DNA from: Polyodon spathula
Lineage: Eukaryota > Chordata > Actinopteri > Acipenseriformes > Polyodontidae
Assembly: GCF_017654505.1 (NCBI RefSeq)
Contig: NW_024471559.1
Location: 34,176-98,175, forward strand
Length of the DNA: 64,000 nt
Direction: 5' to 3'
Shown here: positions 13,001 to 59,186 of the stretch, piece by piece
Numbering within the stretch: the stretch's first letter is position 1
How the letters are laid out: every line of letters begins with the position of its first letter
Notes under the pieces: model-generated
Seen by the model: the letters and a program-made list of their open reading frames with translations, nothing else
What the model was told of the DNA's origin: nothing
Databases searched by the model: none
Program-made: the position numbers and the translations under genes

Positions 13001-13500
13001 NNNNNNNNNNNNNNNNNNNNNNNNNNNNNNNNNNNNNNNNNNNNNNNNNNNNNNNNNNNNNNNNNNNNNNNNNNNNNNNNNNNNNNNNNNNNNNNNNNNN
13101 NNNNNNNNNNNNNNNNNNNNNNNNNNNNNNNNNNNNNNNNNNNNNNNNNNNNNNNNNNNNNNNNNNNNNNNNNNNNNNNNNNNNNNNNNNNNNNNNNNNN
13201 NNNNNNNNNNNNNNNNNNNNNNNNNNNNNNNNNNNNNNNNNNNNNNNNNNNNNNNNNNNNNNNNNNNNNNNNNNNNNNNNNNNNNNNNNNNNNNNNNNNN
13301 NNNNNNNNNNNNNNNNNNNNNNNNNNNNNNNNNNNNNNNNNNNNNNNNNNNNNNNNNNNNNNNNNNNNNNNNNNNNNNNNNNNNNNNNNNNNNNNNNNNN
13401 NNNNNNNNNNNNNNNNNNNNNNNNNNNNNNNNNNNNNNNNNNNNNNNNNNNNNNNNNNNNNNNNNNNNNNNNNNNNNNNNNNNNNNNNNNNNNNNNNNNN
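13001..13500. other. Assembly gap (500 N)
   Basis: Exactly 500 N, the conventional placeholder for a scaffold join of unknown size. Predicted ORFs that run through it are artefacts. Confidence 0.99.
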
Positions 13501-13596
13501 ACCGGGACTGTGAGGGCAGCAATCCCATCTGGGAAGACTCTGGGAGTGTAGGAGGCAGTGATGAAGAGGGGAGAGGGGAGAGGGGAGGCACGTCAC

Positions 13597-13655
13597 AGGG
13601 ATGGGAGTATGACACTCCCACTGCAGAGTGGTGTGATCCAGTCCTGGTGTCACTA
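13597..13655 (+). mobile_element. MITE terminal fragment next to a PLEKHG5 exon
   Basis: The run beginning gggatgggagtatgacactc and ending at agtcctggtgtcac matches the left terminal repeat of the foldback element described at 40340-40516. It ends directly at the splice donor of the PLEKHG5 exon 13657-13793. Confidence 0.5.
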
Positions 13656-13656
13656 C

Positions 13657-55571: not shown

Positions 55572-55608
<37 letters not shown>

Positions 55609-58600
55609 GTAGTAGTAGTATTATTAGTGTTGTTATTATTTGTTTGATGACTTTACTGTTCATTCAGAGACAGTGAGTGAAAGGGATCCTGGTGTTTAAG
55701 ATGAAAGGGAAACGATTCAGAAACGTTGTAAGCTTTTGCGTTTAACTGCCTGGCACTGAAATATGTACATTTTGAAAGATGAGACTGAACAGACCCCCGT
55801 ACACGACACTGTCAAAATACACACCGCCCTCGCCATCCCGCCAGCGTCGGCGCCCTGGTCTTCTGCCAGGAAGCTCGATTACGTGAGACGCCGCTGTGCT
55901 GGTGTGGGGAAGGCTCGGGTGTGTTTTTCACAGTCTCTGTAACCAGAAGCAGAACCAGCTGATTCCTGCGTGAGTCACGCTGCTCGGCTCCTGTGCACCG
56001 CAGAGCTGGTTTTCTATCGCAGCAGGAGCAAGCCTGGGATTGCATTGCAGTGTGTTTGGGATTGTGGGTGCTGCTGTAGAAATCACAAACAGCTGCCGCT
56101 TCACCAGCCCGGCAGGCGAAACCGTTCAGTCCAGTTCATTTGAAACGCCTGACAGAAAACAGATGTGTTTTAATAACACCAGGGTAAAACTTTTACAGAA
56201 AGCGCTTGGCGGGGACGGAGATAAGGCTCCTGTTGCAGAGAACAGGGGTGGTCCGAATGGTTTAGTAAGACACACTGTGGCTAATCGGACTCCTAGTAAA
56301 GCCTGGAGCGGATGCAGCCGCTGTGGAGCAGGAGTCTTGTTCTCATTGCCCCCTCCCGGTCTCTCTCCAGGCGGCTCTGACGGCTCGCGGCTGTATGACT
56401 GCGTGTGGCGCTACAACTCGAGTGTGAACGAGTGGACCGAGGTGTCCCCGATGCTGAAGCCGCGGGAGTACCACGCCTCCTGCCTGCTGAAGGGCCAGCT
56501 GTACGTGGTGGCCTCCGACAGCACGGAGCGCTACGACCACAGCCTGGACGCCTGGGAGCCGCTGCCGCCCATGCTGCACCCCATGGACAACTGCTCCACC
56601 ACCGCCTGCAGGGGGCGCCTCTACGCCACCGGCTGCCTGGCCGGCCAGGAGACCATGGTCATCCAGTGCTACGACCCTGACTCCGGACGCTGGTCCCTGG
56701 TCAACTGCGGCCCGCTGCCTCCCTGGAGCTTCGCACCCAAGACCGTGGCCCTCAACGGACTCATCTACTTCATCAGGTGAGATGGGGGGCTTTAGACAGA
56801 CGCTTCCACTGGGAGTCTTTCTCAGCGACTTCAGTGTAAATTCAGTGACAAGCGAAAGAGAAAGCTAAGCCCAGGCACTGCAGTGTGCCCCAGTGCAGTG
56901 TGCAGTGTGCCCCAGTGCAGTGTGCAGTGTGCCCCAGTGCAGTGTGCCCCAGTGCAGTGTGCAGTGTGCCCCAGTGCAGTGTGCAGTGTGTGCAGTGTGC
57001 CCCAGTGCAGTGTGCAGTGCAGTGTGCCCCAGTGCAGTGTGCGGTGTGCCCCAGTGCAGTGTGCAGTGTGCCCCAGTGCAGTGTGCAGTGTGCCCCAGTG
57101 CAGTGTGCCCCAGTGCAGTGTGCAGTGTGCCCCAGTGCAGTGTGCAGTGTGCCCCAGTGCAGTGTGCCCCAGTGTGCCCCAGTGCAGTGTGCGGTGTGCC
57201 CCAGTGCAGTGTGCCCCAGTGCAGTGTGCAGTGTGCCCCAGTGCAGTGTGCGGTGTGCCCCAGTGCAGTGTGCGGTGTGCCCCAGTGCAGTGTGCGGTGT
57301 GCCCCAGTGCAGTAGTGCAGTGTGCCCCAGTGCAGTGTGCGGTGTGCCCCAGTGCAGTGTGCGGTGTGCCCCAGTGCAGTGTGCGGTGTGCCCCAGTGCA
57401 GTGTGCGGTGTGCCCCAGTGCAGTGTGCCAGTGCAGTGTGCCCCAGTGCAGTGTGCAGTGTGCCCAGTGCAGTGTGCCCCAGTGCAGTGTGCAGTGTGCC
57501 CCAGTGCAGTGTGCAGTGTGCCCCAGTGCAGTGTGCCCCAGTGCAGTGTGCAGTGTGCCCCAGTGCAGTGTGCAGTGTGCCCCAGTGCAGTGTGCCCCAG
57601 TGCAGTGTGCGGTGTGCCAGTGTGCAGTGTGCAGTGTGCCCCAGTGCAGTGTGCGGTGTGCCCCAGTGCAGTGTGCAGTGTGCCCCAGTGCAGTGTGCCA
57701 GTGTGCCCAGTGCAGTGTGCCCCAGTGCAGTGTGCAGTGTGCCCCAGTGCAGTGTGCAGTGTGCCAGTGTGCGGTGTGTGTGCAGTGTGCGGTGTGCCCC
57801 AGTGCAGTGTGCGGTGTGCCCCAGTGCAGTGTGCGGTGTGCCCCGGTGTTCAGTGCAGTGTGCGGTGTGCCCCAGTGCAGTGTGCAGTGTGCCCCAGTGC
57901 AGTGTGCGGTGTGCCCCGGTGCAGTGTGCGGTGTGCCCCAGTGCAGTGTGCGGTGTGCCCCTCCCCAGTGTGCGGTGTGCCCCGCTGTGCCTCAGTGTGC
58001 GGTGTGCCCCAGTGCAGTGTGCGCTCTCGGTGTGCCCCAGTGCAGTGTGCGGTGTGCCGGGGTGCAGTGTGCGTGTGCCCCAGTGCAGTGTGCCCCAGTG
58101 CAGTGTGCGGTGTGCCCCAGTGCAGTGTGCAGTGTGCCCCAGTGCGGTGTGCCCCAGTGCAGTGTGCGGTGTGCCCCAGTGCAGTGTGCGGTGTGCCCCC
58201 AGTCCCCGGTGTGCCCAGTGCAGTGTGGTGTGCCCCAGTGCAGTGTGCGGTGTGCCCCAGTGCAGTGTGCGGTGTGACCCCAGTGCCCCGTGCAGTGTGG
58301 TGCTGCGGTGTGCCCCAGTGCAGTGTGCGGTGTGCCCCAGTGCAGTGTGCGGTGTGCCCCAGTGCAGTGTGCGGTGTGCCCCAGTGCAGTGCTCTCGCTG
58401 TGCCTCTGTGTCTCTGACCCTCCCCGGGGCTGGGGCGTGCTCTCGCTGTGCCTCTGTGTCTCTGACCCTCCCCGGGGCTGGGGCGTGCTCTCGCTGTGCA
58501 GTGTGTCTGTGTCTCCCTGACCCCGCCTCTCTGTTCCTGCAGGGCTGGGGCTGCTCTCGCTGTGCCTCGTGTCTCACCCTCCCCCTGGGGAATGCTCTCG

Positions 58601-59096
58601 CTGTGCCTCTGATCTCTGACCCTCCCCGGGGCTGGGGCGTGCTCTCGCTGTGCCTCTGTGTCTCTGACCCTCCCCGGGGCTGGGGCGTGCTCTCGCTGTG
58701 CCTCTGTGTCTCTGACCCTCCCCGGGGCTGGGGCGTGCTCTCACTCTTCCTCTGTGTCTCTGCCAGGTCCACGTGGGGGGCAGCGTGGCCCCGCTGGGTG
58801 GGAAGCTGTTCGTGTCGGGTGGTTACGATGACACCTTCGAGCTGTCGGACGTGGTGGAGGCCTACGACCCCTCGACTGGAACCTGGAGCCGTGCGGCGCG
58901 GCTTCCCCAGCCCACGTTCTGGCACGGCAGCGTCAGCATCTTCCGGCAGTTCATGCCCTCGGCGCCCATCGGCTTCGAGGCGGGACTGGATAACGCCAAC
59001 AACGAGGTCAACGCCGTACACCTGCACCGACACCAGCAGAACCACAGGGCCCAGGCACTGCTGCACCAGAACCAGAACCTCAACCAGCTCCACTAG
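54419..59096 (+). CDS. KLHL21: KLHL21, BTB-BACK-Kelch Cullin-3 adaptor; one internal exon missing
   Basis: KLHL21 recruits Cul3 ubiquitin ligase to the midzone for cytokinesis. Exon 1 (54419-55451) codes MDKPPALLVTQSST, the BTB domain (LRAERKFFDVTL ... YTGRATVSHENVDPLL), BACK domain and the first Kelch blade (GGCDQDCDELVTVDCYNPHTG). Exon 2 (56371-56776) continues GGSDGSRLYDCVWRYNSSV to NGLIYFIR in phase 2. The last exon (58767-59096) begins VHVGGSVAPLGGKL in phase 0 and ends NLNQLH*. Joining 2 to 4 directly breaks the frame. The human protein has 24 residues (DDSAEVDVYNPTRNEWDK...) between, implying a 73-nt exon which I cannot find in 56777-58766, a region made of minisatellites. With it the protein would be 613 aa (human 597). 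Poly(A) signal at 59775. Confidence 0.93.
55563..55633 (+). repeat. (ATT)n microsatellite
   Basis: ATT run with some AGT units in KLHL21 intron 1. Confidence 0.95.
56212..56350 (+). mobile_element. MITE copy in KLHL21 intron 1
   Basis: ggacggagataaggctcctg at the left and gctgtggagcaggagtcttg at the right match the arms of the element at 40340-40516. It ends about 20 bp from the acceptor of exon 2. Confidence 0.6.
56883..58392 (+). repeat. CCCAGTGCAGTGTGC(AGTGTGC) array in KLHL21 intron 2
   Basis: About 1.5 kb of 15- and 22-bp units built from ccccagtgcagtgtgc with inserted agtgtgc or ggtgtgc. It becomes more degenerate from about 57840. Open frames of 464-769 aa in several frames on both strands follow from the repeat and have no gene-like composition. 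Confidence 0.95.
58393..58766 (+). repeat. 48-bp repeat derived from the KLHL21 last-exon acceptor region
   Basis: Units of ctctcgctgtgcctctgtgt, ctctgaccctccccggggct, ggggcgtg. The final stretch (ctctcactcttcctctgtgt then ctctgccag|gtccacgtgggg) is the true acceptor plus exon start and aligns with the unit. One inner unit (58505-58550) has its own cctgcag acceptor-like site. Confidence 0.9.
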
Positions 59097-59186
59097 AACC
59101 CAGAGACAGGGGGACCACTCTGGGGAAGCAAGAGTCTCGCTGCAGGGCACTCTGAAGCAGTGCAGGTTTTCCATTGTGAAGCCTTG

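What the first reader, a model, noticed from the sequence alone, without database searches (positions are those of the whole stretch)
13500..59100. Gene-block-wide pattern: minisatellites nucleate at splice sites and fill introns
In at least eight introns of five genes the array begins within about 50 bp of a donor or acceptor (for example 6 bp in PLEKHG5 at 23107, 5 bp in NOL9 at 29818, about 12 bp in ZBTB48 at 36612), and in five cases the unit includes the junction itself. Minisatellites are known to cluster in GC-rich subtelomeric regions, but systematic origin at exon borders is not something I know as described. Possible causes are replication-transcription conflict or R-loop-linked slippage at exon ends, or selection removing repeats from exons so that they stop there.
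Basis: partly seen in the sequence, partly recalled or inferred. Interest (0 to 1): 0.8.

Follow-up and report, generated by a model that had tools for sequence, protein, structure and literature searches.

The report
Minisatellites filling short paddlefish introns
In a GC-rich gene block of the American paddlefish, short introns have been swollen by tandem repeats; a few repeats copied the exon end and its splice signal into the intron, but repeats sit about as close to splice sites as such short introns make likely, and the same kind of structure is already known from lancelets and human ABCA7.

Summary
The arrays are real. From 13.5 kb on, 28 minisatellites (TRF score at least 150) cover 17.7 of 50.0 kb and 61% of 17 introns read by eye. 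The contig is Polyodon spathula's (NOL9 protein 100% identical, contig length 98,175). Array edges lie within 50 bp of a splice site in most array-bearing introns, as reported. But minus their arrays these introns are mostly 65-450 bp. Random seeding predicts as many edges within 50 bp as seen: 7 of 16 against 6.6-6.7 in eight introns, P 0.51-0.57. Within 20 bp there is a hint of excess that depends on the intron set and the null (P 0.007-0.43). Two NOL9 arrays truly span a donor: 27 and 22 exon nucleotides recur in the intron. A myosin gene on another contig shows the same (21 nt). The number of spanning arrays fits random seeding (3 against 1.9-2.9). Boundary-spanning minisatellites are known ("mirages" in amphioxus; ABCA7 VNTR in human). 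Verdict: a vertebrate example of a known kind; systematic nucleation at splice sites is not shown. A 25-residue KLHL21 exon is missing inside an array of this assembly.

The parts
30168..30806 (-). NOL9 intron-3 array, 54-nt unit, about 12 copies; unit holds the last 27 exon nt (30806-30780) plus the donor; GT kept in 3 of 12 copies, the real one included
   Evidence: junction LFTLSV|KERG present in P0001
27933..28046 (-). NOL9 intron-9 array, 36-nt unit, about 3 copies; unit holds the last 22 exon nt (28046-28025) plus an intact donor TCG|GTGAGT; degenerate copies on to about 26541
   Evidence: one search used a guessed junction; VCDCLGFG|VLRGVD in P0001
22032..23118 (-). PLEKHG5 array, 50-nt unit, about 22 copies; last copy covers donor 23113|23112 and 6 exon nt; only the junction copy reads GGTAC, the 21 other matches GGGAC
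   Evidence: exon itself not confirmed by homology
36613..38217 (+). ZBTB48 intron 36597-38225 is 99% array (41-nt unit, 39 copies); 37 copies read CTCTCCTGCACAGGG, like an acceptor; match to the real acceptor stops 8 nt before the exon
31313..31935 (-). NOL9 intron-1 array, 62-nt unit, 10 copies; match ends 6 nt before acceptor 31307
29683..29810 (-). NOL9 intron-4 array starting 10-12 nt after donor 29823
14533..15131 (-). PLEKHG5 intron array, 20-nt unit, 53 and 116 bp from its junctions
28296..28394 (-). NOL9 intron-8 array, 32-nt unit, 87 and 327 bp from its junctions (a counter-example)
36139..36289 (+). ZBTB48 intron-1 array, 31-nt unit, ends 16 nt before acceptor 36305; 5' end of the intron not read, so not in the tests
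56879..58762 (+). KLHL21 arrays (44- and 48-nt units); match ends 4 nt before acceptor 58766; a 25-residue exon is missing inside the 48-nt array in this assembly (orphan acceptor ends at 58542)
25348..25812 (-). array in the NOL9 3' UTR beginning about 10 nt after the stop codon (TGA 25824-25822)
   Evidence: P0001 ends APSWKN
39541..40003 (-). THAP3 intron array, 72-nt unit, 47 bp from a donor that fails the phase check

Best explanation
This is a GC-rich, gene-dense, minisatellite-rich block of the American paddlefish, with short introns. Local tandem duplications arise anywhere in it and then grow by slippage or unequal exchange. Selection keeps them out of coding sequence, so they fill the introns up to the exon borders. 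Because most of these introns were only about 65-450 bp long, a seed of some tens of bases often lies next to a junction or across it. When it lies across a donor, the exon end and the 5' splice site become part of the repeat unit, and the intron fills with copies of the donor, some still intact, while the original junction copy stays in use. Shown: the arrays, the NOL9 junctions, the exon-derived units, the null comparison. Inferred: growth mechanism, selection, ancestral intron length, which donor is used in the cell.
For: Arrays take 61% of 17 introns read by eye and 32% of three intergenic blocks drawn by eye, so they are not confined to splice sites. Edges within 50 bp match random seeding in every intron set. 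Junction-spanning arrays in set C: 3 against 1.90 (donor crossing allowed) or 2.87 (both ends allowed). Direction exon to intron: the repeated exon ends encode peptides found in other fishes (LFGFS in Amia, LFGLS in Megalops); a C.C[LVIM]GFG motif is in 67 of 120 listed NOL9 proteins, the LF motif as I wrote it in 29 of 120. Decoys: 10 donors in NOL9 I9 score at least as well as its own donor, 12 in the C58 myosin array (weight matrix recalled). One array stops about 10 nt after a stop codon. Arrays rise with GC among sampled loci: 0 arrays in 35 loci under 40% GC, 5 in 18 loci at 40-45%, 6 in 14 loci above 45% (the sample is not random).
Against: Within 20 bp there is an excess under some choices (7 edges against 3.56, P 0.007, in set C with no crossing allowed). 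The spanning arrays seen are at donors and none at acceptors, which plain random seeding does not predict by itself. Introns with one unread end were left out of the tests, and several of those have an array close to a junction (ZBTB48 I1, C48, C58, C7). The sample is small: 6-11 introns per test.
Confidence: 0.7

Rival explanations
1. Splice sites, donors above all, are preferred starting points for tandem duplication, for example because the exon-intron border pauses replication or transcription or forms an R-loop.
For: Excess of edges within 20 bp in some tests (six of 24 P values at 20 bp are at or below 0.041). Donor-spanning arrays in at least two genes on two contigs (NOL9 on C65, myosin on C58). 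PLEKHG5 Ia is a long intron (7.8 kb) yet has an array exactly on its donor, if that exon is real.
Against: No excess within 50 bp and none of spanning arrays. Coding-strand GC skew positive in only 10 of 16 window arrays and 2 of 5 others. The PLEKHG5 exon is unconfirmed.
Confidence: 0.14
2. Arrays seed at random, but those spanning acceptors are removed by selection, because a repeated branch point, tract and AG upstream would be spliced first; those spanning donors survive.
For: Spanning arrays: 4 at donors (one weak), 0 at acceptors; three acceptor-side matches stop 4-8 nt before the exon.
Against: Four against none is not significant (two-sided sign test 0.125, by hand). Amphioxus has acceptor-spanning cases. 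ZBTB48 carries 37 acceptor-like copies.
Confidence: 0.12
3. Assembly artefact: arrays or their edges are wrong because long reads collapse or mis-join repeats.
For: Two 500-N gaps; a KLHL21 exon present in a paddlefish protein from another contig is absent inside an array here.
Against: NOL9 junctions agree with the NCBI protein of the same contig (not independent of the assembly). In NOL9 I3 and PLEKHG5 the junction copy differs from most inner copies at the splice dinucleotide, which collapse would not create.
Confidence: 0.04

Closest known systems
'Mirage' minisatellites of amphioxus (Adh3, globin genes BflGb6 and BflGb9; PMC3087553, section 16 read)
   Same: Tandem repeats whose unit spans an exon-intron border; many but not all copies keep AG/GT; cluster boundaries are exempt from homogenisation.
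   Different: Here in a ray-finned fish; spanning cases seen only at donors; two in one gene of a GC-rich block and one on another contig. Amphioxus has cases at both exon ends, with RT-PCR and haplotype data; here none.
ABCA7 intron-18 VNTR in human (PMC5954066, passages read)
   Same: 25-bp unit immediately beside exon 18 whose first GT is the exon-18 donor; a downstream copy can serve as cryptic donor and retains one unit.
   Different: There the VNTR starts at the GT; NOL9 and C58 units also carry 21-27 exon nt. Splicing and length variation were measured there, not here.
Tandem-repeat-only introns of GC-rich avian genes (PMC6792250, passages read)
   Same: Introns made almost wholly of tandem repeats in GC-rich genes that assemblies lose.
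   Different: Passages seen do not describe units that include splice junctions.
Intronic minisatellites in fish genes, such as Sparus aurata growth hormone (named in PMC3045353, passages read)
   Same: Copy-number-variable tandem repeats inside introns of a ray-finned fish.
   Different: Passages seen do not place a splice junction inside the unit.
Dual-specific AGGT splice-site arrays such as UBC (PMC10809524, abstract and outline read)
   Same: Tandem copies each carrying a usable splice site.
   Different: UBC repeats are coding; these are intronic.

Membership tests
Mirage minisatellite (exon-intron boundary-spanning tandem repeat) | Unit includes exon sequence and the splice border | tested here: met
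   NOL9 30780 (27 nt), NOL9 28025 (22 nt, 21 identical), C58 myosin (21 nt, 19 identical). Not met at ZBTB48 I1 and I2, KLHL21, NOL9 I1 and I4, PLEKHG5 Ib, nor at NOL9 I8; PLEKHG5 Ia weak (6 nt)
Mirage minisatellite (exon-intron boundary-spanning tandem repeat) | Many but not all copies keep AG/GT | tested here: inconclusive
   GT in 3 of 12 matches (NOL9 I3) and 1 of 22 (PLEKHG5), so few; 7 of 7 in NOL9 I9 by a pattern that leaves GT open:
Mirage minisatellite (exon-intron boundary-spanning tandem repeat) | Normal splicing not disturbed | not testable with these tools
   no RNA reads; the NCBI NOL9 model uses the first donor
Mirage minisatellite (exon-intron boundary-spanning tandem repeat) | Length instability between haplotypes | not tested
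   one assembly read; KLHL21 differs between this contig and a protein of another paddlefish contig, cause open
ABCA7-type donor VNTR | Array begins at the canonical donor GT | tested here: not met
   NOL9 I3, NOL9 I9 and C58 begin 21-27 nt inside the exon; PLEKHG5 6 nt inside

The most novel reading that the evidence does not exclude
In GC-rich parts of the paddlefish genome, donor sites themselves seed minisatellites, so exon ends are repeatedly copied into introns as ready-made decoy donors, a standing source of new exon ends and of gene-to-gene differences in intron length.
Probability: 0.12. Interest if true: 0.65.

Novelty: new member of a known kind. Interest (0 to 1): 0.33.

Why it matters
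If the ordinary reading holds, it extends boundary-spanning minisatellites, in print for lancelets and human ABCA7, to a ray-finned fish, and gives clean cases where an exon end and its donor have been copied up to a dozen times into an intron. These are natural tests of how the spliceosome picks the first of many equal donors. It also warns that exons inside such arrays can vanish from assemblies, as a KLHL21 exon did here. If donors really seeded arrays, that would be a mutation bias tied to gene structure.

Tried and rejected
Nucleation at splice sites as the main reading: not upheld by the null comparisons. In one search I dropped two of the nine window introns: THAP3 (phases do not fit) and KLHL21 (missing exon); I added NOL9 I9, counted only to the nearest acceptor copy (about 27858, read by eye), and tested with and without PLEKHG5 Ia. 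Not in any null test because one intron end was not read: ZBTB48 I1 (36139), C48 kinesin (array about 10 nt from a donor, L083), C58 myosin (L084), C7 TCP1 (array about 48 bp from a donor, L068). Leaving them out removes cases near junctions, so it favours my reading.

R-loop reading: set aside for lack of a consistent coding-strand skew. Uniform inactivation of decoys by selection: not seen (GT in 3 of 12 and 1 of 22, but 7 of 7 in NOL9 I9 and 12 strong decoys in C58). In one search the printed '0 decoys' for NOL9 I3 comes from rounding my threshold; one search shows two further sites identical to its donor string. Repeats creating the exon end: set aside, since related fishes have a similar exon-end peptide. 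Second NOL9 copy in the genome as a control: none found. Confirming the PLEKHG5 23113 exon by a second copy: none found. In one search the NOL9 I9 junction was a guess (28036); searches place it at 28025. In one search a KLHL21 DNA string typed from a wrong reading was not found; one search replaced it by reading the frame.
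Full report
What is there. TRF lists 147 rows on the window. Merged at period 10 or more and score 150 or more they make 28 arrays of 17,720 bp, all right of 13,500; the AT-rich left 13 kb has none. The window is G000:C65:34176-98175, a 98,175-bp contig of a 1.54-Gb assembly. The closest protein to the NOL9 read from the window is 100% identical, named Polyodon spathula, on a contig of 98,175 bp. N gaps lie at 13001-13500 and 38501-39000, so order and orientation of the blocks are not secure.

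Genes and junctions. NOL9 was supported by PDB homology, by an open frame through eight joined exons, and by P0001, which contains LFTLSVKERG and VCDCLGFGVLRGVD across the two junctions that matter. ZBTB48, PHF13, THAP3, KLHL21 and PLEKHG5 were recognised from recalled human sequence and read by eye; KLHL21 also by homologues. Junction strings were placed by script. The PLEKHG5 exon ending at 23113 has no homology support, and its donor is weak, 3.2 on a recalled matrix on which eleven junctions score 2.9 to 11.4.

Is the pattern more than chance? Nine introns with both ends read bear arrays; with arrays placed at random inside them, 8 of 18 outer edges within 50 bp compare with 7.14 expected (P 0.38), and 7 of 18 within 20 bp with 3.84 (P 0.022). 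That null forbids a seed to lie across a junction, although such seeds exist. Allowing it, on the same nine introns: within 20 bp 7 against 4.46 to 5.15 (P 0.07 to 0.17), within 50 bp 8 against 7.14 to 7.50 (P 0.39 to 0.50), spanning arrays 2 against 2.30 to 3.54. After dropping THAP3 and KLHL21 and adding NOL9 I9 (eight introns, 16 edges, set C): within 20 bp 7 against 3.56 (no crossing, P 0.007), 3.99 (donor, P 0.024), 4.45 (both, P 0.051); within 50 bp 7 against 6.57 to 6.71 (P 0.51 to 0.57); spanning 3 against 1.90 to 2.87 (P 0.28 to 0.61). The strict six-intron set gives P 0.067 to 0.18 for edges at 20 bp. Adding the two sampled introns from other contigs (C42, C57) weakens the signal (set D: P 0.029 to 0.23 for edges at 20 bp). 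So the reported 50-bp proximity is what short introns give; a weak excess at 20 bp remains open and rests partly on the unconfirmed PLEKHG5 exon.

Why random seeding suffices. Intron length minus array plus one unit gives 65 (ZBTB48), 118, 190, 250, 260 and 446 bp for the six strict window introns, and about 3.4 kb for PLEKHG5 Ia. Array-free introns of NOL9 here are 88, 89, 110, 173 and 407 bp. A 30-60 bp seed in such an intron has a large chance of touching a border.

What the spanning arrays look like. NOL9 I3: the last 27 exon nt and the donor recur every 54 nt; the donor GT is kept in 3 of 12 copies, CT in the rest. NOL9 I9: 22 exon nt (21 identical) and an intact GTGAGT recur every 36 nt, with degenerate copies onward to 26557. 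C58 myosin, another contig (1.29 Mb; that C65 belongs to the same chromosome cannot be excluded): 21 exon nt (19 identical) plus CAG|GTGAGA recur every 38 nt; 12 decoys equal the real donor in score. PLEKHG5: the junction copy alone reads GGTAC, the other 21 matches GGGAC. Unit lengths 54 and 36 are multiples of three, 38 and 50 are not. The repeated exon ends are old coding sequence: FLSSLPEHRQLFGFS in Amia, FLTSLPEHRELFGLS in Megalops; a C.C[LVIM]GFG motif in 67 of 120 listed NOL9 proteins, the LF motif as I wrote it in 29 of 120. Hence the copy went from exon to intron.

The acceptor side. In NOL9 I1, ZBTB48 I2 and KLHL21 the repeat matches the intron up to 6, 8 and 4 nt before the exon and then stops. 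ZBTB48 carries 37 identical CTCTCCTGCACAGGG copies and its intron is 99% array. No array seen crosses an acceptor into the exon.

Rest of the genome. Exons of kinesin, TCP1 and myosin families were located in the same assembly. In 67 sampled loci (60 around the best kinesin and TCP1 matches, less one duplicate, plus 8 chosen on small or unplaced contigs; some overlap; not random), arrays of score 150 or more number 0 in 35 loci below 40% GC, 5 in 18 at 40-45%, 6 in 14 at 45% and above. The window's density (28 in 50 kb) is far above this sample and goes with GC.

What is known. [quoted passage not shown] The human ABCA7 VNTR includes the exon-18 donor, and a copy can be used as cryptic donor (PMC5954066, passages). 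Avian GC-rich genes have introns made of tandem repeats (PMC6792250, passages). Sea bream growth hormone has intronic minisatellites (PMC3045353, passages). In C. elegans one minisatellite is enriched beside exons of genes with several alternative-splicing decisions (PMC4039745, passages). The paddlefish genome paper reports lower gene density and larger introns on macrochromosomes than on microchromosomes (PMC8042750, passages). In my ten searches, judged by listings and the passages named, I saw no genome-wide test of array-to-splice-site distance and no fish array said to span a splice junction; the library lacks most subscription papers.

Verdict. The structures are real, a few are striking, and they belong to a known kind. 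Systematic nucleation at splice sites is not shown. On checking I lowered confidence in the main reading from 0.72 to 0.70, because the introns left out of the tests include several with an array near a junction.

Noticed in passing
window 56777-58766 (KLHL21): A 25-residue exon (RDDSAEV...PPMTQ, in paddlefish protein P0130 from another contig, and present in 24 of 24 proteins that hold both anchors, of 89 listed) is absent; an orphan acceptor ends at 58542 and array follows directly. Assembly collapse or a real array-mediated exon deletion.
   Followed up: partly
window 26361-27858 (NOL9): The exon at 26494-26361 seems to have a second, degenerate copy about 1,344 bp upstream in gene direction (77% over 336 columns, flanking array included).
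   Followed up: partly
window 31040-31081 (NOL9 intron 2): A stretch from +2 of donor 31084 matches the intron-3 array unit over 44 nt (92.5% over 40 nt), although an exon lies between.
   Followed up: no
window 38501-39000 and 13001-13500: Gaps of exactly 500 N; the THAP3-PHF13-KLHL21 block is inverted relative to the recalled human order, so it may be mis-oriented.
   Followed up: no
window 59923-62714: Largest array: 24-nt unit, 118 copies, strong G skew, downstream of KLHL21.
   Followed up: no
L083 2595-2679 (C48 kinesin): 28-nt array about 10 nt after a donor on a small contig.
   Followed up: partly
window 25348-25812: Array starts about 10 nt after the NOL9 stop codon: a coding border that is not a splice site.
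   Followed up: yes
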